Source: Trametes villosa
Taxonomy: Eukaryota > Basidiomycota > Agaricomycetes > Polyporales > Polyporaceae
DNA: 64,000 bases
Reading direction: 5' to 3'
NCBI GenBank assembly: GCA_002964805.2
Contig: PUDQ02000015.1
Coordinates: 124,001-188,000, forward strand
Part shown: positions 37,520 to 57,660 of the stretch, one piece after another
Numbering within the stretch: the stretch's first letter is position 1
Layout: each line of letters begins with the position of its first letter
Position numbers and translations under genes: made by a program
The notes under the pieces: model-generated
What the model was told of the DNA's origin: nothing
The model's database searches: none
What the model saw: the letters and a program-made list of their open reading frames with translations, nothing else

Positions 37520-38629
37520 TTATGACGCCGTAACCACAGGTGGCGGGTCTCGTCTCGCCTTGCGAGGATCCTGGACTTCAATATCCCGCAGTAGGCTTTG
37601 GACTTCCGCCTGGAAGGACTCCTGATGAACGCCAACAGAAAGCGATATCAGTTTGTGCGGCTACGGGGGAATCCAAAAAGGATTGCACACGAACATTGCG
37701 GCTGTGATCGCTGACGAGGGGTATGACTTGCCGCCATGCCCACTTGAATTCATCCATCATACGTTCTCGCACGTCATCTTTAGATGTGAGGAATCTCGCG
37801 ACCCGGACCTGGTGCAGAGACGTATGTCAGCGCGGCCTCGGCACCCAAGAGATCGGCGGCGCGTCTACCTGGGCGTCCTTGTTGCGGATTGCGTGGAAGT
37901 CGCCGATGCTTGCTGGGAACTGCTGGTCACGGCGGCGTTGTATTGCCTCCTCCCGTTCCCTGTGCATGTTTCGCTCTCTAGCAATTGGGGCAATTCTAGA
38001 GAGGTACGCGTGGTTGAGGCGGTCTAGGTTGCTGTCGAACGCATTGGTTGAATCGAAATTCAGCCGGCTGCGCCTATAAAAATTCTGCGCGACGTCAGTA
38101 ATTTCCCGATAACGAGAGACAGCGAGGATATAGGACCACTGCTCCGGTGTAGAGTGACCCGCACTTGCTTCGCAAGCGACTTGACCCGCGCAGAAGATAA
38201 AATCAAAAGAAGAACAGTCGATCATACCTCTGCCCCGGGGACTTCAATGTCCGGCTTGGACTGTGCAAGGTCGACCATGTCGTCGTAGTAGTCTTGCGCC
38301 TGCCAGTGGTACAACGTCCGGACGTCTTGTATATGCTGCTTCTGCATCTCCTGCATGCGCTCTTTCAGTGAGGCCGACGTCTCATGTGCCACATTCGCCT
38401 TCTTGATCGCATCGAGCCTGGGGAGTAGGTTCAAGCGGGCGCTTTTGCAGCAAATGTTTGTGCTCACATACCCTGGAAAGAAGGTCCCGTTGAGTTCCAT
38501 GATATCCTCGACGAACTGCCGCCTTTGGATCGCATCTCGCAACTCGCGCAACTCCTCGGGTGACGCGTCCTTCGCGCGCGCCGCGATAGCGTGTAGGTTG
38601 CGCTGGGTGAGGGGTATCGCTCCAGACAT
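37520..38629 (-). CDS. Unknown helical, charged protein
   Basis: Minus-strand exon chain from ATG 38629 (MSGAIPLTQRNLHAIAARAK) to TAA at 37522-37520. Segments: the N-terminal helical part to about 38222 (DASPEELRELRDAIQRRQFVE, then ASLKERMQEMQKQHIQDV), a second exon near 38090-37850 (YRRSRLNFDSTNAFDSNLDRL, PIARERNMHREREEAIQRR), a third near 37810-37700 (DDVRERMMDEFKWAWRQVIP), and a last one reading AEVQSLLRDIEVQDPRKARR. Residues are strongly charged with heptad-like spacing, suggesting coiled coils. I do not recognise the family. Exact exon borders are uncertain; a short intron interrupts the first segment near 38470 (donor GTATGTG, acceptor CCCCAG). Confidence 0.55.
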
Positions 38630-41384
38630 ATTGCGGATGCTAGTTCTTGCGCTGTTCTTGCGGGACGCTTTCAACGGGCTCTGGAGCCCTGAATTACAAC
38701 TTGGACAGGATACGTCCCGTCGAGAGGATAAGTAAGTGGTGGTCAAAGCGAGTTCGAATTCGATTCCGAGTCCAGACATCAAGTTGAAACAGTACCTCGC
38801 GGTCCAGGCGCCAACTTTCTAAATCAGTACACTAACGCCGCGCGCCGCGCAGCTACGTCACTCGCGCACTCACTTGATCACGCACTCACCGCTCACTCAA
38901 TGGTCAGATATGTCACAACTATGCGTTCGAGTCTTCTCAGTACCCCCTTCGGATCTGGTGGACCATCAGGACCATCCGTAGCCTCTTCGAGTTGCTGGGG
39001 AGGTTGCCAAAGAGGCAACTCCGGCCGCTCATACTACAGCTGTTCACGAGCTTAGAGCGCAAATGGATGATCGGGCGAGTGGACAAGCTTTTGCATCGAC
39101 TTGACCACAAAGGACACAGGCGTAGGCATCCTGTACGCTCCTGTACGCCATGCGGTCGATCGTTGGGATCAGCGCACGGTCATTGAGGAGGAAGTGATTA
39201 ATGATTTCCCATACTAGATCTCGTTCGGGGCCGTCGCATTCGAGGAGGGGAGACGTTTGTCCTGGTGCTCGGTGGCTCGGCTGGGGATGCTGCCGTTTAG
39301 CTGACACCTCGTATGTTCAGGGTCAACGCTAGCGCGACTCGTGACGATGGGCCCGGGCAGCTCACGGTGGAATGGACAAGGAGGGGCAATGCTCACATAG
39401 TATTAGGGCGCCGCGGCCTAGCGGGCCTCGAGTACACCGTGGAAGGTTAATGAACATTGAATATGAAGCCCTCCCGCGATACTGATCAGCTTCGTGCCCA
39501 ATCCCGGTTGTGGCTAGTTGTAGTGGTAGTGGCGCGTGGGCCATAGTATGAGCGCTAAGAGGCGCCTCGGCTCCGATCAACTCGAACTACTAACCTGAGC
39601 CTACTGAGACCGTGGTTCAACGCATCCACCGACATCGTATACCTCCTCGTGACCATGAGGCCCTAGGAATCTAGCTGTCTTTGGCAATACTTGAGCACAG
39701 TGTGCTGTACGCTGGGGATACATCACGGTCTCGTTAACGTCACGGTCTCACCTGTCGCTATGAAACTTAGGCTCATCACCTTCAACGCCTCGCTGGTAAC
39801 TCCTCTACCAATCGAACGACGGGGAAAAGATAATGGCTTGTGGCAGGGGGAACCCGTAAAAGATGTCAGTGTTTGATCGTTAAGCATATCCTCGTAAATA
39901 TTGAACTGACCCGCGAGTTGCAGTGATTCCTTCCCAGGTCGCTACATGGTACGGAGGCCTTACTTAGGGAGTTATCGACGGTTGTACGCTCTCAACACAC
40001 TTGCGGGCGCACCCCGGAGGACAACTCGGCGCATCGCGGCGGTGAATACTGCAGCTCATCAACAATTCTGCGGGTAAGCACCGTAAACATCGCGAGACCA
40101 ACCGATGCCGCTGTGCACACCTACCGTGTCGTTCCGCGTCCATGAAAGATCATGCCGCGAGAAGTAGGCCAATACGCAGAGTTAGCTTGATTGCTCAATC
40201 ATCAGTTCCCTGGCGGCTGAGCGACGAAGTGCACTCTGTGGTTCCGCAACCGATGCCGTCATCTAGATGCCTGACCATCGGTCGAGCTTTCCCATGTCAA
40301 TCTGAGTTCTCTGGATGCGTACATTTCCTCTTTTTGTCTCGCTATTCCATACGGTGTAAAGGGCCGTGTTGAATATGCGGGGCAAACCCGTCCGTGTGGG
40401 CGATAGAGCCCAAGCTCAGGAATGGACTGAACATTGATGATCTCGGTCCCGTCTCCTTCGTAGACGTCACGCAGCACCTTTCAGCCCCTTCGATCCTCAC
40501 ACTGCCCCTCCATGCTACGGGTACCCGCGTCGCAACCAAGTGAGTAGGACGGGGCCGCACTATGGAGTGGGCAGGGCAAGGAATGGAGGAGGTGGCATGT
40601 CAGGCGCAGATATCGGCGGACAGTCACTTCGATGACCCGATCGCGAGACCATTGTACACCCTTTGTACGCTGTTCAGCCTGCAGAGACTGTCATATACGC
40701 TGGTGGTGTCGGTGGTCCGCAGGTGTAGCTGGACCGTCTGAAACAGTACCGCAGACCGTTTGTGACAGCCCGGATCGTCGATGGAAGTTGAAGCGTACAT
40801 CACATCTAGGAGGCCCGGGTCCTGGCTCTTCTCTCGCGCTGCTTGAGTCTTGAGTTTGTACAGCCGAACGCTTGTATATGGCTGCTGATTGGACACAAAC
40901 TGGCTTTCTGACGACTGTAGTCAAGATGTGCTGGTGGGAGAAGAGAAGTATTGATGATGCGCGCTCGACTGCACGTCAATTCGTCGGAGCCGCGCGCTTT
41001 CTGCAGCTATACGAGTCTTCTAGCTGACGCGTCTTCCCACAGTGATCACTCTCGTTATGCCTCTCATATGAGGTATTGTATCCAGCCCGTCTGGTCGGAA
41101 ACCGTCGACCTACCCCGCTGTGTACTCGCCCCGTGCTTCGTCGGTCTCGTCGACTGTTCGACATCGCTTCGATCGGGCCGCTTCCAACGGGGATCTGCGC
41201 GGCGTCGCGCAGTGGCAATGCCTTTCATTACCGCACTTGTTCCCCGGCTCCCCGGATTTGCCTGAGGAACACACAGTACACGAGGAGGATATCTGACCTT
41301 CCTCAGCGCTCCCGCGCCCTCCGATCTCTTCGCTGGTTCAACCCTCTTGCGCTCGACCAGACTTCTCCCGCGTCGCATCGTGCA
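38630..41384. other. Gene-poor stretch of 2.8 kb with weak coding-like remnants
   Basis: Two minus-strand frames look protein-like, at 40896-40624 (MSNQQPYTSVRLYKLKTQAA) and about 40500-40259 (LRDVYEGDGTEIINVQSIPE). They could be exons of an unrecognised or decayed gene, but I could not build a start-to-stop model. The last 270 bp (41115-41384) have a diverged copy at 45.88-46.15 kb and belong to the promoter of the 41657 gene. Confidence 0.35.
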
Positions 41385-41498
41385 CGATATCTACTCGCGA
41401 CTTCGATATCTACTTGCTGCTACGATATCCTCTGGCTGTTTCGATATCCACCTCCAGCTTCGATATCATGCATACACCAGGATATCGTCCTTCAAGAA
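41385..41498 (+). promoter_or_regulatory. Six-copy 19-bp array of GATATC palindromes upstream of the 41657 gene
   Basis: GATATC occurs at 41386, 41405, 41424, 41443, 41462 and 41481, an exact 19-bp period. Five of the six units start with CGATATC (the last with GGATATC), whereas the remaining 12 bases of each unit vary (first unit CGATATCTACTCGCGACTT). A constant 6-7 bp core at fixed spacing with free spacers is what a multi-site operator looks like, not a simple minisatellite. GATATC contains GATA on both strands, so a GATA-type zinc finger is a candidate binder; this is inference. A TATA-like TATAAAT follows at 41504-41510. Confidence 0.75.
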
Positions 41499-41503
41499 TC
41501 ACG

Positions 41504-41510
41504 TATAAAT
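41504..41510 (+). promoter_or_regulatory. TATA-like box of the 41657 gene
   Basis: TATAAAT, 147 bp upstream of the ATG and 18 bp after the last GATATC. The diverged copy of this promoter also has a TATA-like ATATAAG at a similar distance (about 46.27 kb, ATG 46426). Confidence 0.45.
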
Positions 41511-41656
41511 TTGATAGGTCGATGGCTCGCCATTCACCCCAACATCCTTCTGGACCTACTTCCCCCTGCGGTTTGCTCATAAAGGTGCCGTGTTTTGTCT
41601 TTCTGCGTCAGCAGAGGCGAGCATCTCATCCCCTCCGTCTAGCTCCTTGACCGGAC

Positions 41657-43167
41657 ATGCCTCAGGACCTAGAGCCCCGCGACCCGTTCCTCAGTTACGA
41701 CACTGTCGATAGTCGCTTCCCCCGCGCAACCGGGACCGCGGAGGATCAAGAATTGCCATCGGCTCTCGTCTACCAGAATGGTGGTGCGTTCCCTGACAGC
41801 GCACGGAGCCCTGACCTCAGCCTTGTCGATACGGTATGGGCTCTGCAATTAATCACTCGTACTATCATGCTCACCTCTTTCATGCCGCGCAGTCGAACAT
41901 GACGGATGTGTCCGGCACGTTCTTGAACAGAGGAAACACGCCTACAGCCGAGGAGATCACGAACTTGATGCTTCAGTCCGAGGGAGTCACCGCGGATTTT
42001 TTGTCGCTATTGGTGAGTTTTGAGTTGTGGTGGTTGCTTCCGCTTTTCGCTAACTAGTTACTAGCCGCCCAATTCTGAAGACGCGATGCGTGTGGATGGT
42101 TTGCCTCGGCGGATCCTCGCTGTAAGTCTTCGGACCCCTGGCGTGTGGGAAGGCTTTCACTCACAGTCGACGTACAGGACTCATACCCAGCGCCGCAGGT
42201 TGACCTGTCGGTAGCCCGCTCCTCCGGCTACGTGACAACACACCCCGCCACGGGAACTCAAGCCACTTCATCAATCGGGTCGGCTCCTGTGTCCACTTCC
42301 GAAGCTCGTGGCGAGCTTCCCGTGCCTCATCAGCAGCATGCTTCTGCTACTACATGCCTCGACAGTCCTTCCACGCGACAAGACCACCCCAATGCCGTAC
42401 CTTCGGATGGTGAAATGGACATCCAGTCGTTTAGGGACGCCAACCAGAGCCAGTGGGCCATCCCTCAGGAGCTGTACCAGGGCAACAGCCGGAGCGCTCC
42501 GAAGGACGGCAAGTTCCCAGCTATGCCCGTCGACGTAGCCGCACAGGACGCTCTGCGTCCGGAGTCTCTCATAGAAGCGCTCAACCACCCCCTGGTGTCA
42601 GCGTTCCCGGACCCGGAGGCTAAGCGAAGAAGCAAGAGGTTTACTATCCGTTTTGCTGTAAGTGCCGCTCGCCCGAGTTCCCCCAGGTTGTCATGATAAA
42701 GGATACTGAATTTGCCCCAGTTCCAGGGCCGACATGAATGCAACGCAGCGACTCAATTCCTCGAGTACGCGTCTGGCAATCAGGACTCCCGGTTCGTCGA
42801 ATCCGCTAGGACGCACTCCAAAGCCCCCGTATCGGTGGCGAAGGCCGTGCCCCTTGTGCGGATCAAGGTTGTTGAGCTAGTTGCCCGGGAACTGCACAAG
42901 TTCCTGGTCAGTCTACCTTTTCATCTCATGCGCCACGCTTATCTTGCTGACCTTACCTTTCAGAGTGAATTGGAGACGGCGGCCAGGGCCCCTCCCGCGC
43001 AGCAGACTGGTGAATACCCTGCCAAGAGGCCGCCGCCGCCGCTACAGTTCAAAGGCCGCGACGTCAAGTATGAGCATATACAGATCGTCTCCATCTTCCG
43101 ACCTACGGCCGCGTCCATGCAGGCGATGCTCGTGATCCGCCCCGACTGTTACCACTTCTACGAATGA
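41657..43167 (+). CDS. Unknown protein under the GATATC-array promoter
   Basis: Six exons in phase: 41657-41833, 41893-42012, 42065-42121, 42178-42657, 42721-42906 and 42964-43167, giving 407 residues. The fourth exon could also start at 42199 (CCGCAG acceptor). There is no signal peptide, membrane segment or domain that I recognise. The middle is Ser/Thr/Pro-rich. A basic segment (FPDPEAKRRSKRFTIRFAFQ) precedes a better structured C-terminal half (ATQFLEYASGNQDSRFVE, KAVPLVRIKVVELVARELHK, then VKYEHIQIVSIFRPTAASMQ). A second, truncated copy lies at 46426-47170, with similar promoter, TATA position and start (MPQDLEPRDPF against MPYSEFRPSSP). Coding status is supported by phase-consistent splicing and by the copy. 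Function unknown. Confidence 0.65.
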
Positions 43168-45099
43168 TTACCCCGAGTCTGCTGCTCGGCGCGGACGGTG
43201 CGCTCTCACATCGATCTCGGTCCCAATGATAGCGCTGACTAGACTCCCAGCTCGCCCCGAGGATGGAGCGTGTGTAGTAGCAGTTCCTATAACACAAGCT
43301 GCCTTCCCCTTTCTCGCTCGTGACCCGCCTTCACCGCACGTCTTGTACTATACAGATCTCTGGCCACGGTCGGTTCGGAATTTTTCGCCCTGTACAGTAG
43401 CTCGCGCCTCATAATTGCATTCACATTTGCCTCTCCAGAGCTCCGAGTATGCGCTGTCACGCACTACATTGACAATATCATGGGCATTGCGCATACACTC
43501 TGTGGTGTATCGGGTTGTTGATCTTTCACCATCGTCACTCTTTGTCTTTACACTCCTCTCCCGAGCCGTTACGATGTTCGCTCCGCTCGTGCCGCACTCT
43601 ATTGCATGATCTCAACTACTCTACTACAAGCGACAGGCTGTCATCCTCCATCTCTGGATGGTGAACCAGTTGACGCTCTCCTGGCCTCCCAAGGACGAAG
43701 TCGAGACCATCAGGACGCCGGCAGGTAGGAACGGCGGTATCACCATGGAAGCCCACGCATACGATCTTGTTATATTCGTGGCGTGTAGCTCTGTGGCATC
43801 TGCATCGCCGTCGCAGTAGAGTCCACGTCGAGTATAGTAACGCCCACGATTGTTTATACTTGGTGGCGGCTGGTGGTGTGCGGGAACTGGCCCGACCGTC
43901 TGGCGCAACGGTGTCGCGACCGAACTCTGGCCGGCAGCCCGGCGCCTCTCGGGAGATTGGGAAGGAACGCTGCCGCGATGCAACGGCTTGTCTTATTGTT
44001 CCCTGTGGGCGCAAGCATTCAGTCCTGACTCGAGGCACCAGGAGCGAGCGACTATGACAAACACATGACAAAGTGCGATCATCGCAGGAAAGGCCACGCG
44101 CTAGTGTGCTCGGTCGCCGGGCACACCATCTTCGGGAAGCGATGTCGACGATGGGAATTCGCAGGAACATTTCTCGAAAACACGCCCTCATGCTGGAGGA
44201 CTCAGGATAGCTACTTACTGGCGGTGTGGCGTCGCTCGTTGGCGCGGTCGTCGACAACTGTGGTTAAGACCACGGCGGGTGGGGGTGGCGGCTAGTAGTA
44301 GTTACTCACGTCGTCATGACATCCCTTGCCCAATTCCGGCGCAGTGTGGGGAAGCCGAAGCGAGCATGCCGCTAACTACGCGTTGAAGCAGCGCACGCAA
44401 GAATTTAGCCAGGATAGAAATTGGGAATAGAGATACTGACATGCATCTTGAACGCCACGAAAAATATCGGGTTTGACGATCATGTTAGCCTCGTGCGTCG
44501 TATCCCTTGATGGCAGTCTAGCATACCTTCGTACCGGGAAGCTTGAAAGTGTGCCCGGAGGGTAAGAGACGGCTTGGCCAGCAAAAGGAAGATACGGCGG
44601 GTCTCGCTGCGAGACTGCTTGAGCGATGTGGGGACTTGGGGAGTTTCGAACCCAACATATGGTGTAGTTCCCTGTAAAGGGTGCCTATTAGTCGTTAAAG
44701 ATCTTATATGCCTGCCAAGGTCTGTCACGATGACGATGTTTAGACACTTCAAATGTATATGTCGCTTCTACATGCTCTACGTACACCGGGTGTAGCCGCC
44801 TCATTCGCCTTCTTCGTCGAACATAGCCTGGGCAGAGAGCCGGGTGCGCACGCTCGCGAAAGAGACTCATGAACACATACCAAAGTGAGAGTCTTCGTTT
44901 GAAGTCCAATACAACCTCGACAATCGCCGCCGATAGACCGCGTCGCGCAACTCGCGTTGCTGTTCAGGTTGTGTTCAGGAGACTAGAACCCAAAGGCGCG
45001 CTGCGGCGACATCGTGTACGTTGCACCTATCAGAAGGCATTGTCGTCAGAAACCCTATGGAATAACGCTCGGTATGGTGACATAGCTACTAGTCATGAG
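43168..45099. other. Stretch of 1.9 kb without a clear gene
   Basis: 3' flank of the 41657 gene. On the minus strand at about 43990-43616 two overlapping frames look partly protein-like (for example GDTAVPTCRRPDGLDFVLGR), possibly the tail of a decayed gene. Nothing could be assembled or named. A tRNA-like TTCGAA stretch near 44650 does not fold as a tRNA. Confidence 0.35.
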
Positions 45100-45445
45100 T
45101 GCAGGAGAGCGCGTCCTTGCCGGGGGGAGTCAGGCGATGGTGGCAGCACGAGCGTGATGATATTTAGGCGCGCGTCAGCTCTCGCTGCTACCACCAGCTT
45201 CGCCGCCCACATCCCGCCAAACTGAGCAGCCACGCGAGGACGTGTAGTCGTTGAGACGATCGCAGGGGAAGTCTACACTGAGCTTTAGTCAAAGGTGCGC
45301 ACATCGTCGTCCACTCCGCTGCCCGCCGTTCAAGCTAGTACGCCCAGGAAATGCCCAAAGCAGGTCGGAACTTCATAGCACGCGCGATGGAAGGCGCGTC
45401 TCGCCCTCGCTTCGTGCGGAGAACATTGCTAGATATTCTGTACCA
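45100..45445 (+). pseudogene. Decayed copy of the CWC27 promoter and first exons
   Basis: This matches 51490-51785 along its length: the inverted GGTGGTGGTAGCAGCGAG-type sequence, the CTTCGCCGCCCACA leader, the first coding exon and the second (GCCCAAAGC..GTCGGAACTTCATAGCAC). Compared with the intact gene the ATG has become ACG, and the Trp codon in ELWSK has become TAG (GAGCTTTAGTCAAAG). The copy ends soon after the second exon. It therefore cannot make the protein. Confidence 0.85.
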
Positions 45446-45519
45446 CCCACACCAATATCGACCATCAGGTATGTCGCCGAATTCGCCGGGGATCGCTACT
45501 CATACCTCCCCCTTCCATT

Positions 45520-45760
45520 ACCGCGCGGCTCGGGCGACAGGACCTCGTTGCAGCCCTGCTGGTGCCGGTCGGGTTGCGGATAGTCGAACAGGATCTCATC
45601 TACGCGCGGGAGGCTGCCGACATCCTCGAGTTGCTTGTATGCTGTTCCGTCGCTACAGTGACTGCGTGTGGAAAGGAGAACAGAAGGACCGGCGCCGGCC
45701 TGCAAGGATTCCGCGAGCAGTGCTCTATTCTGCGGCCGCGAGACTGGTACGAGGACTAAC
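45520..45760 (+). pseudogene. Fragment copied from the NTF2-like gene
   Basis: The sequence follows the fifth exon of the gene at 54879-57660 (57261-57521): GGACCTCGTTGCAGCCCTGC, GGATCTCATCTACGCGCGGG, GCGAGCAG..ATTCTGCGGCC. The reading frame still shows DLIYAREAADILELL and ILRPRDW. It lies in the same orientation as its source and directly follows the CWC27 fragment, but has no start, no upstream exons and no splice sites. Confidence 0.8.
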
Positions 45761-45767
45761 TGAGGCC

Positions 45768-45855
45768 CGCTCAAGGATCTGCTACCGACGTGTTTCGTTA
45801 TTGGGGGCGCGGAGATGATACTCGACCCGGTGCGTACGCTGTGCGACCGGATTTT
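45768..45855 (+). pseudogene. Fragment copied from the alpha/beta hydrolase gene
   Basis: GCTCAAGGATCTGCTACCGA and GCGGAGATGATACTCGACCC match 59463-59550 of the hydrolase gene (GLLKGLPPTCIIIGGAEMIL, DPVRTLRDR). Fewer than 15 bases separate it from the NTF2-like fragment, whereas the sources are 1.9 kb apart. Only about 30 codons are kept. Confidence 0.8.
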
Positions 45856-45879
45856 GATTGGGCAAAGTCTACTACAGTC

Positions 45880-47180
45880 GGCCCTCACTCCGTTTGACTG
45901 CAGAGAGATATCCGCCTTTCCCGCCGTGTACTCCTCCGGCAGGCTGAACGACACGCGAGCATCGCTACGACTGCGCTATATCCAACGGGAGTCTGCGCAT
46001 GAACGTCGCGCCCTGGTGACGACCTTCATTTCCGCACTTCGTTCCTGGCGTGCCTCTGGCCTCCCGGACTGGGGGAAATATCCGACCTACTACCTCAACG
46101 CCCCCGGACCCACCGGTCATTTGGTTGATCTTCTCCCGGTTTTGCATCAGGGATGATATACACTAACAGCCTCGATATCTTAATGTAAAGCATACGCCAG
46201 GATAGCAGCCTTCACGAAATTAACATGCGTGGCACCGAGGGCGGAGTGCAACTCAGTGCACGGCGAGCGACATATAAGTATGGGGGCGTTGGCAGCTCGC
46301 CATCTACACCAGCCTCAATCTACACCTACTTCCGCCTCCACTGTACCTATAAAGGTGCAGTGCTCTACCGTTCTACGTCGGCATATGCGAGTATCTCATG
46401 TCCTTCATCTAGCTTCTTGACCAGACATGCCTTACTCGGAGTTCCGCCCCTCGTCCCCGACTGACCGTACCATCAACTTTTTTTACCCTCTCGAAACCGG
46501 GCCCGCGGAAGATCGAGAAGCGTTATCAACCCCGGTCTACAGCGTACCGAGCACTGACTACTATGATATCATGGTATGGTATCAACCTTGAATTGATTAC
46601 TCGTACTCCCGTGCTCACTCTTTCAAGTGCAACGCGCAGTGGGACGATGTTCACAGCCCGTGCGCTACGTGGCTGGAGGCGATGCTCAACGGGACATATA
46701 CGGTTGCCTCAGAGGAGTTTGATGAATGGCCCGTGTACATGTTGGGAGCATCATCGGTGAGTTTCGGGGCATAGTGGTTGCTGCCGCTTTGGCCTAACTA
46801 GTAGCTAGGAACAGCCCAATTCTGAGAGCACAATGCTTGTGAATGGGGAAAACTCTCCTCGCAACCCCGCAGTAAGCTGCCAGACTCGCGACCTGTGGCG
46901 AGGCTTTCGCTCACAGTACATATAGCACGTATGTTCAGTGCAGGCCGGCCAGTCGGCAGCGCGCTCGTCCGGTCCCGCGGCGACCCATGGACCTGCCACG
47001 AGTGATCAAGCCACTTCTGACGGGTCGGCTCCTGTGTCCACTTCCGAATCTCGCAGCGAGCTTCCCGTGTCTCTTCAACGGCATGCTTCTGATATGTGCC
47101 TCGACGGTTCTCCCGCGCGACGGGACCGCCCTGATGTCGTACCTTCGGATGGAAAAATGGCCCGACCGCGCCAGTGGTCG
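45880..47180 (+). pseudogene. Truncated second copy of the 41657 gene with its promoter
   Basis: Homology to 41115-42420 covers the upstream region, the GATATC array, the TATA region and the first four exons. The start is ATG 46426 (MPYSEFRPSSPTDR against MPQDLEPRDPF). The block SAPVSTSESRSELPVSLQRH matches SAPVSTSEARGELPVPHQQH. The copy stops in the middle of exon 4 after VPSDGKM and runs straight into P450 sequence near 47170-47190, so the C-terminal half is missing. Early exons are quite diverged; whether a short protein is still made is unclear. Confidence 0.75.
46155..46206 (+). promoter_or_regulatory. Reduced GATATC array in the duplicated promoter
   Basis: GATATA at 46155, GATATC at 46174 (19 bp apart) and GATAGC at 46201 (19 plus an 8-bp insertion). 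These correspond to the last three units of the array at 41385-41498. Shared flanks such as GCATACGCCAGGATAG against GCATACACCAGGATAT confirm the relationship. Confidence 0.6.
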
Positions 47181-47830
47181 TATAGTACGGGCACGGCACC
47201 GGCATGCTGAAGTCGGACTTCTACGGCGCCTGCCTATCTATACGCCGCATCATCTTCACGACCCGCTCGCGTCGGAGCATGCACGCCTTCGCAAGATTGC
47301 CTCGCATGCCTTCTCGCAGAAGAGCGCCCTTTAGCTTGAGCCACACGTGCGCCAACATTTCGCGCCGCAGTCCAGGCAGCGGGGCAAGCTCTGCTCGGGC
47401 GGCGCGAAGGGCCTTTCGGGCGGCGAGGGTGAGGGCGGCTGGCAAGTGCGCGAAGGTCGGGTCTCGTGCGACTGCCTACCCTGGTATATTTACCTCGCCT
47501 TCCATATCATCTGTGCATATCTGACGTGTTGTATGATCATCAAGCCTAACCACACCTTTGCCCTGAAAGAGACTTCGCGTTCGGTGTGCCGTTCGGCATG
47601 ATTTCGCACCCATTGCGGTCCTACAGGAGGTGGATGTCGTACAGCCATGTGTCGACTGGATACCAGCGGCGCCACCGTGCCCAGGCAATGGCAAGACCGC
47701 CCATCGACGCGGAGTATTCGCCGCAGTCGTTGAAGAACTGGATCGTTGGTACGCTCTCGACTTTGAATCCGCTGTTCTGGCGGTACGCTGCCATTGCCAC
47801 CCCCACGTTCTCTTCGATGTGCCCCTTGTG
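47180..47830. pseudogene. P450 (CYP53-like) fragment, part of it inverted
   Basis: 47190-47605 (plus) matches exon 2 and the start of exon 3 of the P450 at 60736: LKSDFYGACLSIRRIIFTTR, HAFSQKSAL, RVSCDCLPWYIYLAF, then the exon 3 start (GTGCCGTTCGGCATGATTTCG). A TAG follows QKSAL and the region has frame breaks. From about 47820 back to 47640 the minus strand reads VAMAAYRQNSGFKVESVPTI and NDCGEYSASMGG, which matches exon 3 (EAMATYGREGGFRVESVPAI, NGRGEYSASIGV). So the next piece of the same gene is present but inverted. I-helix, ExxR and heme-binding parts are absent. Confidence 0.85.
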
Positions 47831-47874
47831 AGGCTGTGCTGCACATCACGACACTTCCCGCCGGAATTGATCCG

Positions 47875-48276
47875 GGCGCAGTGTGGCCTCCGTCAACGGT
47901 ACTTAGCACCAGCCTCAGCCCGGATGTGACCGTGTCCTTCTCTCCTCGGGCGGCTTCTCCAACATCTTCGCGACGCCTCCATTTCAAACCAATGTGGTCA
48001 ACACGTTCCTGAAGAAGGTGGAGAACACCAACTCCGATTTTTTCAACACCCCGGGGCGCGCGGTCCCCGATATCGCCGGCGAGGTGCACGGTTTCCGGGT
48101 CTCCGTGAACGGGCATATCAAACCCATGGCGGGTGCCGGCGCCGTGGGCCCATCCTTTGCTAGCCTCGTAGCGTTTCTGAACGACGCGCTTCTCAAGGAG
48201 AGCGGCAGTCCAGTCGGACTCCTCGATCCCTTCCTGTACTCTGCTGGCATCGCCGGAGCCTTGAACCACTCGCCTC
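47875..48276 (+). pseudogene. Sedolisin (S53 peptidase) C-terminal fragment without catalytic Ser
   Basis: Reads as the C-terminal part of a fungal sedolisin: SGGFSN(I)FATPPFQTNVV, FLKKVENTNSDFFNTPGRAV, PDIAGEVHGFRVSVNG, FASLVAFLNDALLKESGSPV, GLLDPFLYSAG. In active family members the SxxxGxxxYxxxDxxxxSGTSxSxP-type Ser lies just before PTFAS. Here the aligned stretch is GAGAVGPSFAS, with Gly in place of Ser. One base is missing just before SGGFSN, so the upstream frame is shifted. The N-terminal Glu/Asp catalytic region and prodomain are not in the window. No intact sedolisin gene is in the window. Confidence 0.75.
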
Positions 48277-48429
48277 AGGTAAAACACCGGATGTGGCACG
48301 GACGGCTTACCGATACTGATAGATGGGATGCCACGATAGGTCTGCACGAAATGTCCGAGTACCACATCGGACAAATCACACTGGCACGAAAGTCTGGATT
48401 CGAAGAATCACCTCTCCACGCAAGACTCT

Positions 48430-48560
48430 TCGCTACTGCGAACAGACCACACACACCACTACGAACATATCACCCAGGGCGCCGCGAACAGACCACACAC
48501 GCCGCTCAAGCTACGAGCAGAGTGACAGACCACACAGGCACCGCTGCGAACAAACCACAG
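48430..48560 (+). repeat. Short imperfect tandem repeat
   Basis: Units around GCGAACAGACCACACAC occur near 48438, 48484 and, more diverged, 48531 and 48545. They lie between the sedolisin fragment and the fucosyltransferase-like gene. Function unknown. Confidence 0.4.
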
Positions 48561-48737
48561 GCCATGCTGCAAACCTACCGCTATACGGTAGAGCCTTTGA
48601 ACAGGCCGAGAACAGATTACTCGAAGCACCTCGCGCAGCAACTGTCATTGTACATAGATATGGGCTAGCGAGCGGTCGCTCGGCCCCAGTTTTCTGCCGC
48701 CATCCTCGTCTTTAGGACCCTTATCCGTCGTGACGAC

Positions 48738-50510
48738 ATGCTCTCCGAGAACTACACGCTGCTCCGATTGCTCGAGCAAGTGGACTATCGGTATCCCGTC
48801 AAAAACCGCCGCCTGAGCTTTTTTATCGGCGGCTTCACACTCGTCCTGTTGGGCTTCGTGCTCGTGCCGAGGTGGTCCAGCCATGCAGCCCTGACACCGC
48901 TACGCACGGACGTGTCTGACCGGACATTGTGGCACGCGCCCTCGCCCCACATCCTCCCCCCACTATACTCCGCATACCATCTTGCGGAGCTACGATTGCC
49001 TCAGCAGGACTGGAGTCGGACGCAGCCTGCGCCGGACGAGAAATTCTTCTTTGTCGCCGGACACACGAGAGGTACGTTGGTGCATGCAGTGCGATACGTC
49101 TTTTAGACATCGAAGTGATTGCTAACGGTCAAATCTCATAGCACTTGGGTGGGGGAACGCCGTGCAGGAGCACATACTAAACGCCTACTTGGCATACAAG
49201 TCCGGTAGAATGTAGGCTTCCAGAGGGCCCCGTCATCCGCGGCTATGAGAGGCTGAACAACAGCGCAGATTTGTGTTCGATAACTACACCTGGAACGCTG
49301 ATGGATCTGTCTACTCCGACTCCGATGGCACCGGCATGATCCCCTCACAAATCCCATACTCTGTCCTACTACATGGTACGTCGCGAGTTCATTAAGATTA
49401 CCGGCGAGTGGCCGAGCCTCATTATCGGTGAACAGGTCCCATTGTGGGCGATCCCTTCCCGTATGGCGACCGCGCGCCCCGTGCCGTGACCAATGATTAC
49501 TTCGACCGCCTTTGTCCAACCAAAGTCAACATCGCAAGAAAGACCATCCACAGCACACTCTCCGATGTGAATTCGGTCCAAGAGATAACGGATAGATGGA
49601 TCTCCACCCTTCAGGGCATGAACGACCCCTGCGTGCAGTCTGCACCGGGCTCAGGGCCTATATACACTCATTACGAGTAAGTCCCCCGCGCTCGTATCGG
49701 ACAGTTTCACTCACCTGCACACAGTGTTTGGGGCGTCCGAAGGGCGCTATTGGTAGCCTGGCCAGACCTGATACGCTCCCCTTTCATCACTCACTTCGCA
49801 TTCTCACCTCTGGTCGAGCTCGCGTTCGACATGAACCGCGATCTCTTCATCTCCTCCGACTCCGCCCTCCCCCACCTCTCCAGCACCCCATACTCGACCA
49901 ACGCCGAGCGGTACTCCCTAATCCCCGGGCTCATGGTCCTCCACGTCCGCAAGGGCGACTACGCGACGCACTGCCACTACCTCGCGCTGTCGTCCGAGAA
50001 CTTCGTGAGCGTGAACTCGTTCCCCGAACTCGAGGACCAGTTCACCGTTCCCCCGCATAAGAAGCACGGGAAAAACACGCCCGAGAACATCGAGCTCTAC
50101 CGCAAGCGTTGTCTGCCAACCATTCAGGAGATCGCAGCGAAGGTCGAGCAGGTGCGCGCGTCGAGCGCGGCGCACGGTGTGCGCCGGCTGTATGTCATGA
50201 CGAACGGCCACCCGGAGTACGTGCGCAACCTCAAGGACGCCCTGTGGAGCCTCGGCGGCTGGGACTTGGTCGCGAGCAGCAGGGACCTCGTACTCAACTG
50301 GGAGCAGAAGTACGTGTCGCAAGCGGTGGACATGCTTGTTGCGCAGCGTGCGCAAATACTTGTCGGCAACGGGGTGAGTTGAGATTTCTCCACTTTGTCT
50401 GGGTTCCCAACGCTGATGCACCATGTTTGCAGTTCTCGACTTTGACATCGAACGCGGTGATGATGCGCCTGGCAAACGGTTTCCCCACAGAGGGCACACG
50501 TTTCTGGTAG
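48738..50510 (+). CDS. O-fucosyltransferase-like type II membrane glycosyltransferase
   Basis: Six exons in phase: 48738-49071, 49142-49211, 49269-49375, 49436-49676, 49725-50373 and 50433-50510, giving 492 residues. A short cytoplasmic N-terminus is followed by one membrane anchor (about residues 34-51, FFIGGFTLVLLGFVLVPR) and a Pro-rich stem, so the enzyme should sit in Golgi or ER. The lumenal part begins FFFVAGHTRALGWGNAVQEH and has the conserved blocks GLMVLHVRKGDYATHCHYLA, FVSVNSFPELEDQF and LYVMTNGHPEYVRNL. The block RDLVLNWEQKYVSQAVDMLV follows, then ILVGNGFSTLTSNAVMMRLA. HVRKGDY with the later NGFSTLTS segment is the layout of GDP-fucose protein O-fucosyltransferase-like proteins common in agaricomycetes. 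Donor and acceptor specificity cannot be read from the sequence. The gene looks intact, unlike its left neighbours. Confidence 0.8.
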
Positions 50511-50936
50511 CATGGGGGCACATGTCACTCCGAACATCCTATACACCGCGGGTGTGGAAGTAGAACGCCCGAGCCCACAGCGCCAACGTCAAAATCAAGC
50601 AACGACGCGATCACAAGCATGGACGAAGCGCGTCGGGGATCACAGATACTGGTGTAGCGCGCGATATGGGACGTGCTGGTTCGAGTCTCTCCTTTCAGAC
50701 AGCTCCGGATTCCTCTAAGCTCCTCTAGATTCGATTTGTATCCGTCTCCTACACACCGACATATACATAGACTCACGCGGCTCAGACTCAGTTGCCTCTC
50801 CCATTTTCGCTTGCTCACTCTATTTTGAATAATTTAGATTTCCACCCCTAGTACTCCCCTCCCTGTAGACGCTTACCAGCTGTATACACCCAGCGAAGCA
50901 CTAAAGTCTGAGGCCTTGCTTGTCCGCATTCTTCCA
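50511..50936. other. Intergenic stretch between convergent genes
   Basis: 3' flanks of the fucosyltransferase-like gene and of the minus-strand ORF ending at 50937. A GTTCGAGTC stretch near 50678 is not part of a foldable tRNA. Nothing else is seen. Confidence 0.45.
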
Positions 50937-51495
50937 CTAGCTCGCGTCCGCCCAGTACCTGCAATTGTCGCCGTAGTGTGCCTTCACGTCGATGTGGATA
51001 TCGTATAAACCGTGTTCGTTGACTGCGTTGCTGAATCCGCCCGCGACCGTAAGCCGGTAGTCTTTGCGAGCTGCGGGGGGAGAGCCGGCCAGCGGAAGGT
51101 GTGGCGCGGGGGCGGAAAGAATAAGTACCTGCCCGCCCTGCTGGGTTCCATCGCCGCCGACGGCCGTGATATTGACAAACTCGCGATTCGCCTGACAGTC
51201 GAGCGCGAAGTACAGGTGGTCATCAGGTGCAAGGAGAGGTACATATAAGCGCGGTGCACCACAAGCACAACAGAAATCGTGATGTCGAAGAACCTCATTG
51301 TCTTGCAGAAAGGTCATTTCGTGGCCCTCAGCAAAGTACCTGGCCTCCTTGCCTAGGGGGCTGCTGACTGCATCAAGGGCGCGGACTCGCGCAGGGAATT
51401 GAGACGTGATATCATCCTTCGAAGGGTTCGAATCTAGACCAAAGCGCGACGGAGGTATTGCAGCTTTTCCTGGAATCGCGGCCTGTATGCTGGGG
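50937..51495 (-). pseudogene. 5'-truncated unknown ORF
   Basis: The minus-strand frame is open from about 51540 to a stop at 50937 and reads like real protein: AIPPSRFGLDSNPSKDDITS, QFPARVRALDAVSSPLGKEA, RYFAEGHEMTFLQDNEVLRH, YVPLLAPDDHLYFALDCQAN. The first ATG in frame is at 51317, well inside the coding-looking part, and no start is found upstream. The open part meets, near 51490, the point where the sequence shared with the 45.1-kb CWC27 copy begins. It may be a gene cut by that junction, or one whose first exon I cannot see. Family not recognised. Confidence 0.45.
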
Positions 51496-51611
51496 CGGGA
51501 GTGCAGGTGGTGGTAGCAGCGAGAGCGTGTAAGCGCGCGCTAGCTATAACTCTCGCTACGACCACCAGCTGGTCCAGCTTCGCCGCCCACACCTCTCACA
51601 ACTGAGCAGCC

Positions 51612-53697
51612 ATGGCGCTCCCAACGCGCGGACGCGTCGTCGTTGAGACAACCGCAGGAGAAGTGGATATTGAGCTATGGTCAAAGGTGCGCACATCGCC
51701 GCTCGCAACATTGCCCGCCGCTCGAGCTACGTCCAGGAAACGCCCAAAGCATGTCGGAACTTCATAGCACTTGCGATGGAAGGTACGCCCAGCCGTTCGC
51801 ATTCGCAGAGAAGATTTCTCAGGGTTGAGCCAGGCTACTACGATGGTGTCATATTCCACCGGTGCGCGCATCCATGACCTTGCGCCACGGGATGAAGGCT
51901 CACGAAGTTGTGCAGGATTGTTCCGGGCTTCTTGGTCCAGACGGGCGACCGGACAGGAACAGGTGGTGGAGGAGAGTCATTCTACGGAGGTGCGTGAACT
52001 GCTTGCGGCCCTCTTAGCCTGTCCTCACGCGTCGTTGCTGCATGCAGAGCCGTTCGAGGATGAGATTCATCCACGCTTGCGCTTCATGCACCGTGGTCTG
52101 GTAGCTATGGCGAACAACGGCACCAAGAACTCAAACGACTCCCAGTTCTTCATTACGCTCGGTAAGTCTTGCGTTAACTCCGCGAGGGAGACTGCTAAGA
52201 CCAGGGTACCCCGCTGTAGACCGCGCGGACGAGCTAAATGGCAAGCACACCCTATTCGGACGCGTCATAGGAGACACTATCTACAGTAAGTTATTTGCTA
52301 TGAATAATATATGCGCTGCCTAACGTGTGGCAGATGTCCTGAAAATCGGCGAGATGGGTACGCCCCTACTCTAACTTCTTGTGCACGCAGTGTCTTAGGT
52401 TCCTCCGCTAGAGATTGACGCCAACGAACGGCCGCTATAGTGAGCATGCCATCTTCTGTCGCGTTACACATACTAACCGGTGTATCTGCACAGTCCGCCC
52501 AAGATTAAGCGGATACGTATCGTCGACAATCCCTTCCCAGACATCATACCCCGCATAACTGCGGAGGAGAAGCGCGCCCAGCAGCGGGCGCGCGAGCAGG
52601 CGCAGCGCGAGCGGGAGGATGAGCAACGTCGGCGGGGCGGCAAGAAGTGCGTCCTGCGCGTCAGGATGCAACAACGTTTTTGACATGGGTGCTCACAACA
52701 CTTGCGTTAGGGATGTGAAGCTACTGAGTTTTGGCGCCGAGGAGGAGGCGGAAGAAGAACCGGTGGTGTTCAAGAAGAAACCTATCGTCCGCCCGGACCG
52801 TAAGTCGCGCTACATGACCACCGACGCGCTAGGACGGAGGTGCTGAATGGACACGACAGTGATTGATAGCTCTGAGCTTCCCGCGACGCTTTCGGCTGCG
52901 GTTCCAGAGCCTCTAACGCCAAAGACGAAAGAGAAGGAGAAGCTTCCCAAACGAGACCGCGTCGAGGAGCCAGAGAGTTGGCCGGTAAGTCGATCTACGT
53001 GTATAGCGCCAGCACTCCTTCCTGACGAGGAATCGCAGGTCGAGAAGAAAGCTAAGAAAGACGAGAGTGATATCGCTAAGATCCGCGAACAGCACGAGCG
53101 CGAGAAGGCAGCACAAAGGTGCGCTGTCCTTCGTCAGTTCGGTCTACTGCGGGCTAACCTCTCCGACATAGCAACTCGCGACAGTCCCAGATCGAGAAGA
53201 TGGAGGCGGAGATCCGGAAGCTCTCGCGGCGTGAGGAGGAGAGCGACGATGAGCCCGCGAAGAAGAAGCCGAAGCGATCGCTGCTCGAGGAGGAGATGTC
53301 CAAGTACACGAAGGCGCGCGGCGCGCACAAGAAGGGCAAGGGCAAGAAGGACGAGGGCGACGTGCTCGCCGCGCTTAGCAGCTTCCGCAGCAAGCTCAAG
53401 AGCACTGCGCGTGAGGACTCGCCGCCGCCGAAAGAGCAGCAGCACGATGGTGCAGAGGAGGGCGAGCATAAGCCCGTGGAGGAAGATGAGGGCATGGAGG
53501 TGGACAATGATACGGGCTTCTTGGGGCACGCGCTGCACTTCCCGAAGGGGAACGAGGAGGAGGTCGAGAAAGCGGAGCGAGACTACGAGGTCATCGACCC
53601 AAGACAGCGGGGTGCGCGCGCGAAGGAGGAAGAGCGCGAGCGGAAGCGTGCTCTCATGGCGAAGGACATCACACAGGGACGAGGGTCCCGGAGGTAG
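51612..53697 (+). CDS. CWC27: Spliceosomal cyclophilin-domain protein CWC27
   Basis: Start ATG 51612 (MALPTRGRVVVETTAGEVDI); the coding sequence is spread over about ten short exons and ends at TAG 53695-53697. The cyclophilin domain is assembled from [46 protein letters not shown], then MANNGTKNSNDSQFFITL and NGKHTLFGRVIGDTIY. Linker YPPKIKRIRIVDNPFPDIIP is followed by Arg/Glu-rich coiled coil, the LLSFGAEEEAEEE element, and the C-terminal LGHALHF...RDYEVIDPRQ block. LSFGxEAEEE plus DYEVIDPR are hallmarks of Cwc27 (SDCCAG10/NY-CO-10), a component of activated spliceosomes. The FHR and QFFIT active-site elements are kept. Several introns are tiny, and the domain is cut unusually finely. The long last exon is 53163 or so to 53697. 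It is convergent with CDC8, 95 bp away. Confidence 0.88.
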
Positions 53698-53792
53698 CTG
53701 TTTTGTCTGATCTTTCCCTGCTCTGCCCATGTATTCCGTAGCTACTTGTACATTGCTGGATAACTTCCCCGCGTGCATGACTCTCGCCACCG

Positions 53793-54878: not shown

Positions 54879-57660
54879 ATGTCTTTCAGCGCACGCTTGC
54901 CACCTTCAAGAGGCTCGGGACGGCCTCGCGGGGGGGATCGCGCTCGGTATGCAGCTGGTGCAGCGGCAAAGACTGAAGACGCGCAGCCGAACGAGCTTCT
55001 GAGCAAGCGCAGTGTAGCTGCACCCCCAGTCATTCGCACCTCCGCACCTATTCCTCGCAGCCGCGGTGCTCGGGGTGGAAGAAGCCGAGGTGCCCCTTCA
55101 GTCCCCCGCGGCAGAGGTGGCCCTCCCCCAGTACTACCCACTCCGCGCGCGAGTATAGGCGATGGTAGTTATCACGGTCATGCGGGACGCGCGCCCTCTG
55201 GAACGTGGGGAGGTCCTTCGAGGCCTGGCGCCGAGTTTGGTACGAGTGGGCGAAAGGACCAGGACAGCGTCCAGACACATCCCTATCCCACACCGCGCCG
55301 TTCCTATGGTCCCTACCAACAGCGCGACCTCCCAGGACCCTCGGGCACACTGGTACGTTCATCTCCCTAACATTGCAGCGTTGCTCCGCCGGTTCTGAAC
55401 CTGACCTCACCCTGCAGCATCGCGCGGAGCGCTCAAACAACGCGAACCCGCACGAGCCCTCCGGCGTGGAATACGAGAGCCTGTCCGCGATCCTCAATCA
55501 GAAGCATGCGCTCGATGCTGCGGCCGCATCAGGTCTGGCCCCGAATAGTCGTGGCTGGAGTGACCCTGACCGCACCGCCGTCCCTCCGCGGACCCTGCCT
55601 CCGCGACCCCGTGGTCATCTTCCGTTTTCGAACCTACGGGAGGCCCCTCCCCATCTCAATGGCTCTTCGCGCGACCGTGCTTTTGCTCCAATTGTGCGCG
55701 AACCCGAGCGGGTTATTTCTGCCTCAGGTAGATCTGCCATGCCGAGTCTTCCTAGCACGGGGGACGGTAGTGCGCCCTCGACGAACGCGGCATCTGGTTC
55801 GCGTCCTTATCCCAGACCGGTAATTCCGGTGAAGCCGCTTGTCTCGGCATCCGACCTTCACCTGTCAGACCTCAGCAACCCGGCAGCTTCTGCGAGGACC
55901 GTCCGTGGCGATCTACCTCCTCCGTCAAAGCGTCGCAGAGTCTCCCCACCTAGCACTTCTCGTACACAAAGCAGTTCATTGGCGCGGGATACCCCTTCAG
56001 CACGTCCCGATGTGCCCTCGCCGGCAACATCGCGTTCTTCCAGCGTCTCCCAACCGCTGGCAGCACAAGCAGAAGCTACGACAGCGATTCCCCAGGGTGT
56101 CAAACGCGAACGCAGTCCGTCTCCTGTTATTGACGCCTCTTCTCCGCACCTTGTCACCGAGGGCTGTGTTCGCATCGCGCCTCTACCTACAGAGTGCCAG
56201 ACCGGGCGCCCGGGATTCAAGGCGGCGCGGAAGGCCTGGACGGCACAAGAGGTGAAGAAGCTTCGTGATCGTGGCGTGCAGCCCACGCGTGGATTCGTGC
56301 GGTAAGTATTTCTGGCGCACTTAGAGCATGTCGGAATGGGTTGACTCATAGAGGGGTGCGAGCTTAGGGAGGATGGGTTGGTGATAGACTGGTAAGTCTT
56401 GGTAATCTCATATGCCCGAGCATCATTCTCAAGCCGTTTTCAGGAAGAGCAAGGTTCCCGTTATGTCCGATACCCTCCGCCCTCCGACCGTTGCCTCCGT
56501 TCCAGCGGGGGTTGCTGCCCTCCCTCCGCGACCGGACCCATCCAGCTCAAAGAAGCAGGAGCAGCCAGTGACTTCGACCGGCGGCGAGGCCACTACCAGT
56601 TTGCATACACCAGAGTCAGAAGGTGCAGCGGTGCAGCCCGATCCTACCTCCTCCACTGCTAGCCAACGCCCCGCGCGATCCATTAGGTGGAAGAACATTC
56701 CGGCGCCTGGAGAAACCATATGGGAGCGTGTCCTCCCGCCAGCCCGCCCAGTCCCCGCTGCTCCCCAACAAGACAACGCAGCTTCTAATGCTCGAAGCGG
56801 GCAGTCTTCGCCTGTCGTTGAGCCCGCTACGACTAGTCTATCCGCGGCGGACGTCATCGATCTCACCGAGGGCGATATGACCGAAGTGGATATCATCGAC
56901 CTCACAGAAGAACCTCACGGGCAACCTGAAGGGCACGCGGAATTGTCGCTTTCCCCGACACCACCCCAGTCTACTCCGTCGCCGGAGCCTGCAGTTAACC
57001 GCGAGACTGAACCTCGAGCGCCGGAAGGCGAGGACGAGATGCAAGCGGCTGCACTCCACTTTCTGCAACGGTTCGTCTACGCAGATTGAAAGCTAGCGTT
57101 ACCAGGTCTTCTGGCGATTTGTACTTATATGAACTTTCAGGTACGTCGCGGCGTTTGCCACAGACCGCGCGGATCTGGCAAGTGCCTACTCTCGTGCTGC
57201 GACATTCTCGGCCCATGTGCTTCCATTGCCTACCGCCTCCCGCGACGCTGCTGCAAAAACCTCTCCAGCTCATCACCGCGGGCGACTCGACATCATCGCG
57301 GCCCTGCTCGATCTGCCGGACGAAGAGTTGCCGCCTGAATCGTGGAAGATCGAGTGGGATCTTATCTACGCGCGAGAGGCCGGCGACATCCTTCTCGTTT
57401 GCTACACTACGTCCAGCATGCCCGTGCGTGGGAAGGGGAAAAGAAGGGCCAACACGGGCCCACACGGACTCTGCGAGCAGCGCTTCATTCTGCGGCCACA
57501 GGAGTGGGACGAAGAGGACCGGTGAGCTTCATGCGTAGACATGCACGGGAAAGTGGAGTATTGACGAGGCCGCGTCCAACCTCATTCCAGGTCGACTCCG
57601 GGCGTGTGGCCGCTGGTCGCGGTAGCCCACCAGATGCTTTTCAGGCCGCTGCCGCCGTGA
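54879..57660 (+). CDS. Disordered RG-rich protein with tandem SUMO-interaction motifs and C-terminal NTF2-like domain
   Basis: Six exons in phase: 54879-55352, 55418-56301, 56368-56391 (24-nt microexon encoding REDGLVIDW across its borders), 56444-57070, 57141-57521 and 57591-57660, giving 819 residues. The N-terminal half is disordered with an RG-rich part (RSRGARGGRSRGAPSVPRGR). Near residue 600 two hydrophobic-acidic motifs occur 14 residues apart, VIDLTEGD and IIDLTEE, which are textbook SUMO-interaction motifs. The C-terminal 200 residues fit an NTF2-like fold (ALHFLQRYVAAFATDRADLA, SAYSRAATFSAHVLPLP, then WDLIYAREAGDILLVCY and FILRPQEW), as in mRNA export or scaffold proteins. No leucine-rich repeats or RNA-binding fold are seen, so this is not a standard Mex67. 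A fragment of exon 5 has been copied to 45.5 kb. Confidence 0.75.

What the first reader, a model, noticed from the sequence alone, without database searches (positions are those of the whole stretch)
45100..48280. Collinear mosaic of broken gene copies next to their sources
Within 3.2 kb I find fragments of the CWC27 promoter and 5' exons (source 51.5-51.8 kb), the NTF2-like gene exon 5 (57.3-57.5 kb), the alpha/beta hydrolase (59.46-59.55 kb) and the P450 (61.1-61.7 kb). They are in the same order and orientation as the sources, but with 1.9-5.5 kb gaps between source pieces reduced to tens of bases. A truncated copy of the 41.66-kb gene sits between the hydrolase and P450 pieces, and a sedolisin piece of unknown source follows. 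Two readings fit. One is an old tandem duplication of an approximately 10-kb block that has shrunk by repeated deletion. The other is a capture process of the Helitron or Pack-TYPE kind. Collinearity favours the first; the abrupt chimeric joins leave the second open. I found no clear Helitron or inverted-repeat termini.
Basis: seen in the sequence. Interest (0 to 1): 0.85.

Follow-up and report, generated by a model that had tools for sequence, protein, structure and literature searches.

The report
Shrunken relic of duplicated gene block
A few thousand bases of this polypore fungus genome look like the decayed leftovers of a neighbouring stretch of genes that was copied next to itself and then whittled away by deletions; it is an unusually readable fossil of an ordinary process rather than a new kind of element.

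Summary
In detail: the five named fragments match their nearby sources far beyond chance. The mosaic extends upstream: two more decayed pieces lie at 44040-45026, from a ubiquitin-conjugating-enzyme gene (source 65125-65872, just outside the window) and from the gene at 38.4 kb. The sedolisin piece is the broken left end of a block with a fuller relative on contig C64; that block has shrunk collinearly too. A roughly 165-bp inversion hides that the P450 and sedolisin pieces were joined end to end.

Best reading: a tandem duplication of about 14 kb, from inside the sedolisin to inside the P450. The P450'|sedolisin' join is its junction, and the left copy shrank to about 2.7 kb. The two upstream pieces have the geometry of an older, ~27.5-kb duplication. 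P450' and hydrolase' show no codon constraint since splitting from their sources. The fragment of the 41.66-kb gene is out of register and is the weak point. Template-switching repair is the main rival; Helitron or Pack-TYPE capture is not supported. No relative's DNA was available to decide. Known kind, legible example; the fungus is close to Trametes.

The parts
44040..44695 (-). UBC6': decayed piece of a ubiquitin-conjugating-enzyme gene (the name UBC6 is recalled); source 65125-65872 in window coordinates (C15:189125-189872), minus-strand gene, same relative orientation
   Evidence: blastn 3.5e-27 for 44261-44695 and 8e-5 for 44040-44148; alignment 67% over 643 ungapped columns, introns included; 0/100 shuffles; source exon matches UQ_con weakly, 26.8 bits against a cut-off of 27
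44798..45026 (-). K': decayed piece of the minus-strand gene K (ORF 38225-38818); source 38388-38603
   Evidence: blastn 4.1e-11; 66% over 214 columns; 0/100 shuffles
45100..45430 (+). CWC27': promoter, exon 1, intron 1, exon 2 and start of intron 2 of the cyclophilin-type gene at 51.6 kb; start-codon stretch missing, in-frame stop
   Evidence: blastn 1.4e-39; alignment 51468-51819; source ORF matches Pro_isomerase 9.5e-10
45495..45755 (+). NTF2': piece of the NTF2-like gene, source 57250-57515
   Evidence: blastn 2.1e-18; alignment; source ORF matches NXF_NTF2 weakly, 2e-4, below cut-off
45763..45855 (+). hydrolase': piece of the alpha/beta hydrolase gene, source 59459-59551
   Evidence: 85% over 93 bp, no gap; source ORF matches Abhydrolase_3 4.6e-12
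45911..47162 (+). A': truncated copy of gene A (41.66 kb) with promoter, exons 1-3, three introns and part of exon 4; out of register with its neighbours
   Evidence: source 41105-42420, 69% over 1207 ungapped columns; one TAG inside
47162..47639 (+). P450', forward part, source 61058-61556
   Evidence: 76% over 477 columns
47626..47798 (-). inverted stretch of about 165 bp: sedolisin bit 47626-47678 (C64:504838-504786) and P450' part 47681-47798 (61664-61547); flipping it makes P450' 61058-61664 run into the sedolisin at C64:504786. Its left edge overlaps the forward P450' match, so the exact breakpoint is ambiguous
47798..48331 (+). sedolisin': 5'-truncated sedolisin-like gene, relative C64:504832-505363
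   Evidence: 76% over 539 bp; C64 exon matches Peptidase_S8 weakly, 21.3 bits against a cut-off of 21.8
48335..50551 (+). O-fucosyltransferase-like gene with its upstream, relative C64:505932-508041; codon-position pattern of a constrained gene
   Evidence: 79%; O-FucT 24.5 bits against a cut-off of 31.5; differences 24/229, 15/230, 56/230 at codon positions 1-3
50893..51510 (-). relic of a glucanase-like gene (name recalled from its C64 translation; the one exon tried had no Pfam hit): pieces 50893-51238 and 51266-51510; 1.4 kb of the C64 relative is missing between them
   Evidence: C64:508851-509241 and 510638-510902
41105..42420 (+). source of A' within gene A (41657-43167)
38388..38603 (-). 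source of K' within gene K
51468..51819 (+). source of CWC27'
57250..57515 (+). source of NTF2'
59459..59551 (+). source of hydrolase'
61058..61664 (+). source of P450'

Best explanation
The mosaic is the shrunken left copy of a local tandem duplication. A stretch of about 14 kb, from inside the sedolisin gene (now about 47.7 kb) to inside the P450 gene (61.66 kb), was duplicated head to tail. That joined a 3'-cut P450 (P450') to a 5'-cut sedolisin (sedolisin'). The right copy is the present O-fucosyltransferase, CWC27, thymidylate kinase, NTF2-like, hydrolase and P450 genes. The redundant left copy lost most of its length by deletions, leaving CWC27', NTF2', hydrolase' and P450' in order; later an inversion of about 165 bp flipped the junction itself. 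An older tandem duplication of about 27.5 kb (38.39-65.87 kb) would explain the neighbouring UBC6'|K' pair. Shown: the homologies with their order and strand; truncation on both sides of the P450'|sedolisin' join; flat codon-position changes on P450' and hydrolase'; greater decay of UBC6'; collinear shrinkage of the sedolisin-glucanase block against C64. Inferred: that the joins are duplication junctions and that deletions, not jumps, made the gaps. A' needs one extra step: filler copied from gene A when a break was repaired, or a third tandem unit.
For: Seven of seven local pieces on the source strand after undoing the inversion; CWC27', NTF2', hydrolase', P450' in source order. P450'|sedolisin' has the duplication-junction geometry, and the sequence runs on from sedolisin' to the P450 source gene. 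UBC6 is the most downstream and K the most upstream local source, and UBC6' directly precedes K'. DNA-mediated: introns kept in CWC27', UBC6' and A'. P450' branch 16/166, 22/164, 20/164 at codon positions 1-3, source branch 4, 5, 27 (17 sites where all three differ are not counted). Neighbouring block shrunk collinearly relative to C64: 569 bp to about 4 bp, 1.4 kb to about 28 bp. Weak hint that hydrolase' runs on into its gap: 45856-45910 scores 72 against a best of 67 in 100 shuffles.
Against: A' is out of register, and no trace of A remains between hydrolase and P450 in the right copy (41/100 shuffles reach the score). No remnants of deleted genes in the spacers tested. The 5' part of the sedolisin, expected at the left end of the left copy, is gone. 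The order of all seven pieces is not in itself unusual: two descents or fewer arise in about a quarter of random orders (hand count). Pieces differ in decay, so more than one event is needed. No outgroup genome was available. Collinear loss relative to C64 assumes C64 keeps the older layout.
Confidence: 0.6

Rival explanations
1. Templated filler: a break or stalled fork near the sedolisin gene was repaired by replicative template switching (MMBIR/FoSTeS-like), copying short pieces of neighbouring genes one after another. The mosaic was born broken, in one or two events.
For: Pieces nearly abut; A' is out of order; no remnants of the missing stretches; P450' and hydrolase' show no constraint since the split, as expected of fragments born dead (also expected of redundant whole copies).
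Against: All seven on one strand and four in source order. Two age classes (59/191 against 72/472, p 8e-6, a comparison chosen after seeing the counts) argue against one event. Microhomology not beyond chance at the two joins tested: 6 bases, 438 of 5000 random pairs; 4 bases, 3951 of 5000. In PMC8421209 (passages) 138 of 155 and 135 of 148 resolvable junctions had at least 1 bp, but decay of 12% or more on the copy side would hide that here.
Confidence: 0.25
2. Several independent small local duplications and fillers at one fragile spot, without any large tandem unit.
For: Unequal decay of the pieces; A' out of register.
Against: Order of four pieces and the two junction-like pairs would be coincidence.
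Confidence: 0.1
3. Capture by a Helitron or Pack-TYPE transposon.
For: Chimeric joins of gene pieces that keep introns.
Against: Seven of seven local sources within 38.4-65.9 kb and on one strand; Helitron-like 3' ends 4 (+ strand, shuffles mean 4.2) and 0 (- strand, mean 4.1); only 12-15 nt inverted repeats; no Pfam hit in 10 ORFs of 43.6-48.4 kb; no second copy of the mosaic returned, though those searches would miss short shared ends.
Confidence: 0.03
4. Assembly misjoin.
For: Abrupt joins; 140-contig assembly.
Against: Pieces differ from their sources by about 15-34% of aligned bases; a misjoin would be nearly identical.
Confidence: 0.02

Closest known systems
Tandem duplication followed by random loss (duplication-random loss model, PMC5745709; outline and abstract seen)
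   Same: Tandem copy of several genes, one copy of each decays, non-coding remnants persist
   Different: That work concerns mitochondrial genomes; here a nuclear locus, with more than one round and one piece out of register
Partial and chimeric gene duplicates (PMC3449122, PMC5460883; listing and start of abstract only)
   Same: Breakpoints inside genes leave truncated genes joined at the duplication junction
   Different: Here old, dead and largely deleted
MMBIR templated insertions (PMC8421209; passages)
   Same: Local templates, several pieces joined
   Different: One strand, mostly ordered pieces; passages describe insertions templated within about 100 bp, here sources lie kilobases away; no microhomology signal left
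Helitrons of basidiomycetes (PMC4289320; passages)
   Same: Can carry gene pieces
   Different: No ends, hairpin excess or dispersed copies seen here; [quoted passage not shown]

Membership tests
Decayed tandem duplication | Copy beside its source in direct orientation | tested here: met
   direct only after undoing an inversion of about 165 bp
Decayed tandem duplication | Collinear order of pieces | tested here: inconclusive
   CWC27', NTF2', hydrolase', P450' in order; A' is not
Decayed tandem duplication | Junction joining the downstream end of the unit to its upstream start | tested here: met
   geometry of P450'|sedolisin' and UBC6'|K'; exact original breakpoints cannot be proved
Decayed tandem duplication | Introns retained (DNA-mediated copy) | tested here: met
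Decayed tandem duplication | Remnants of the genes between the kept pieces | tested here: not met
   none found in the spacers tested; removal by deletion would give the same result
Decayed tandem duplication | Unduplicated or less decayed state in relatives | not testable with these tools
   no relatives held for this genome
Helitron | 5'TC / 3'CTRR ends with subterminal hairpin | tested here: not met
   no excess over shuffles in 43100-48400; the 5' end was not tested apart
Helitron | Other copies sharing ends | tested here: inconclusive
   no second mosaic returned, but short ends would be missed
Pack-TYPE (TIR) element | Terminal inverted repeats bounding the mosaic | tested here: not met
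   three inverted pairs of 12-15 nt in 43100-48400, none bounding the mosaic
MMBIR/FoSTeS templated insertion | Microhomology at joins | tested here: inconclusive
   2 joins tested: 6 bases (438/5000 by chance) and 4 bases (3951/5000); old joins
Retrocopy | Introns absent | tested here: not met
   introns present in CWC27', UBC6', A'

The most novel reading that the evidence does not exclude
Two or three nested rounds of tandem duplication and differential loss have re-ordered genes on a nuclear chromosome: gene A, now upstream at 41.66 kb, once lay between the hydrolase and the P450, and the mosaic preserves its old position. A tandem triplication of K-sedolisin-O-FucT-glucanase-CWC27-TMPK-NTF2-hydrolase-A-P450-UBC6 would place every piece in register with deletions only, and would make this a readable nuclear case of duplication-random loss.
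Probability: 0.25. Interest if true: 0.5.

Novelty: new member of a known kind. Interest (0 to 1): 0.35.

Why it matters
It lets one read, piece by piece, how a redundant multi-gene block is erased in a fungal genome: which joins came first (the inversion postdates the P450'|sedolisin' join), that at least two copies show no codon constraint since they split off, and that a neighbouring block with a fuller relative on C64 shrank in the same collinear way. If gene A moved by this route, it would be a nuclear counterpart of a gene-order mechanism best known from mitochondria. It also warns that a row of gene fragments beside their intact sources is not by itself evidence of transposon capture.

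Tried and rejected
Transposon capture: disfavoured on ends, copies and locality. Retrocopying: rejected, introns retained. Assembly artefact: rejected on divergence. Foreign source for the sedolisin: resolved to C64, with weaker paralogs on C140. Second intact block elsewhere: none returned. Microhomology at joins: no signal. Remnants of deleted genes in spacers: 38830-41000 against 51500-61700 (85/100 shuffles reach the score), 43170-44039 against 59000-66000 (29/100), 59695-60730 against 40000-43300 (41/100), 62700-65120 against 38000-43300 (29/100). The gap 45431-45494 against the CWC27-NTF2 interval gave 1/100, a hint only. An earlier idea that the glucanase'|CWC27 border was a new junction was dropped, because the C64 similarity runs to 51510 (weak over its last ~75 bp).

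Flawed steps: one search used gap costs that let scores grow with length and is not relied on; one search repeats most of its tests with stricter costs. Two tests (44696-44797 and 45027-45099) matched themselves in the target and are void. One search used a wrong frame for the hydrolase piece; one search uses the right one. One search used a jump cost low enough to add short chance segments; only segments also seen by blastn, and the limits of the inversion, are used. The whole-genome searches for UBC6 DNA and K protein returned only the query itself and so also missed UBC6' and K'; they cannot exclude other equally diverged copies. Notebook entry 3 overstates the relatives of gene A: the answer has 11 places at E<=1e-3 besides A and A', 9 of all 23 listed on C56.

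Unsettled: the age of A'. A/A' introns differ at 37/163 and all non-coding at 197/659, against non-coding 40/208 in CWC27' and 123/360 in UBC6'.
Full report
What is there. Blastn of 44-49.5 kb against the window returns the five named fragments at the stated places. A more sensitive self-comparison of C15:44001-228000 gave 29 pairs at E<=1e-3, 9 of which are the mosaic, and adds two upstream pieces. In order along the window: UBC6' (44040-44695, source 65125-65872, just beyond the window), K' (44798-45026, source 38388-38603), CWC27' (45100-45430, source 51468-51819), NTF2' (45495-45755, source 57250-57515), hydrolase' (45763-45855, source 59459-59551), A' (45911-47162, source 41105-42420), P450' (47162 to about 47798, source 61058-61664), sedolisin' (from 47798). 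For each of the seven local pieces 0 of 100 dinucleotide shuffles reach the observed score. Blast E-values here are optimistic: 11 hits at E<=1e-3 against the reversed sequence, best 8.5e-7.

Sources. Where whole-genome searches returned rivals, the nearby gene scored best. CWC27' and A' had no rival listed at DNA level. UBC6 DNA and K protein returned only themselves, but those searches also missed UBC6' and K', so other equally diverged copies are not excluded. The ORF around exon 4 of gene A matches 23 places at E<=1, itself and A' included: 11 others at E<=1e-3, and 9 of the 23 lie on contig C56. Gene A has no relative at E<=1e-3 in the protein database. The sedolisin piece is the left end of a block related to C64:504786-510902.

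The hidden inversion. 47681-47798 matches the P450 in reverse (61664-61547), 47626-47678 matches the sedolisin in reverse (C64:504838-504786), and 47798 onwards matches the sedolisin forwards from C64:504832. Flipping this stretch of about 165 bp makes P450 61058-61664 run straight into sedolisin 504786 onwards. The P450'|sedolisin' join therefore predates the inversion. From sedolisin' rightwards the chromosome runs on to the P450 source gene. A 3'-cut downstream gene joined to a 5'-cut upstream gene on one strand is what a tandem-duplication junction looks like. The unit would be 13.9 kb; its left copy now spans 2.7 kb, of which 1322 bp match the unit and about 1.25 kb is A'.

UBC6'|K'. UBC6 is the most downstream and K the most upstream local source, and the two decayed pieces lie side by side in that order: the same geometry for a unit of 27.5 kb. 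102 unassigned bases lie between them.

Decay. With the C82 P450 and C32 hydrolase as outgroups, changes on the P450' branch number 16/166, 22/164 and 20/164 at codon positions 1-3, and on the source branch 4, 5 and 27 of the same totals. (In the two stretches taken apart the copy counts are 5, 17, 12 and 11, 5, 8; sites where all three differ, 17 in all, are left out.) Hydrolase' has 4, 3 and 3 of 31 each, its source 0, 0 and 3. So these copies show no constraint since the split. Differences at positions 1+2 are similar for CWC27', hydrolase' and P450' (7/73, 7/62, 58/337; p 0.17) but about twice as frequent for UBC6' (59/191; p 8e-6, a comparison chosen after seeing the counts), which points to two layers. 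NTF2' (34/165) and K' (45/144) are less informative because the constraint on their sources is unknown. Sedolisin' against C64 gives 61/352 at positions 1+2 and 55/175 at position 3, the level of P450'.

Shrinkage with a fuller relative. Against C64 the window lacks the 5' part of the sedolisin, 569 bp after position 505363 (about 4 bp remain), part of the stretch beyond the O-fucosyltransferase gene, and 1.4 kb of the glucanase-like gene (about 28 bp remain), always keeping order and strand. That the C64 layout is the older one is an inference, and this is an argument by analogy.

What does not fit. A' lies between hydrolase' and P450', whereas A lies at 41.66 kb. Either A' was copied in when that deletion was repaired, or the array once had three units with A between hydrolase and P450. 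No trace of A is left in the right copy there, and spacers where other remnants might be expected are blank. Joins carry no microhomology beyond chance in the two tested. The order of all seven pieces is unremarkable by itself (hand count, about one random order in four); the weight lies on strand, on the order of four pieces and on the two junction-like pairs. For these reasons template-switching repair stays a serious rival at about a quarter.

Known kind. Duplication followed by loss is a standard model (PMC5745709, outline and abstract). Partial or chimeric duplicates are described (PMC3449122, PMC5460883: listing and start of abstract), and small segmental duplications are frequent and quickly eliminated in Drosophila (PMC6380325, abstract). 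Paper searches listed 6, 11 and 7 papers; no title among them describes such a nuclear case in a polypore, and of these papers I opened only PMC5745709. The best named relative of the thymidylate kinase is that of Trametes polyzona (87%; two unnamed proteins rank higher; 120 of 657 hits listed).

Noticed in passing
41657-43167 (gene A) and contig C56: Gene A belongs to a dispersed family (11 other places at E<=1e-3 besides A'; 9 of 23 listed places on C56) without relatives in the protein database. Between A and A', exons 1-2 differ more (55/150, 47/107) than introns (37/163), as fast or diversifying evolution would give.
   Followed up: partly
59302: The hydrolase gene, taken as source, lacks 2 bases relative to its C32 relative, so its reading frame seems to change there: a recent break or an assembly error.
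   Followed up: no
51505-51575: Palindrome in the promoter of CWC27 whose centre appears flipped in the copy at 45158-45193.
   Followed up: no
57987-59847 and 60522-62660: Hydrolase and P450 each have a dispersed relative that includes promoter or flanking DNA (C32, minus; C82) at about 72-75% identity, so gene-sized dispersed DNA duplications seem common here.
   Followed up: partly
C15:118241-119463 and C15:122907-124119 (left of, and just into, the window): Another local direct repeat of about 1.2 kb at 63% identity.
   Followed up: no
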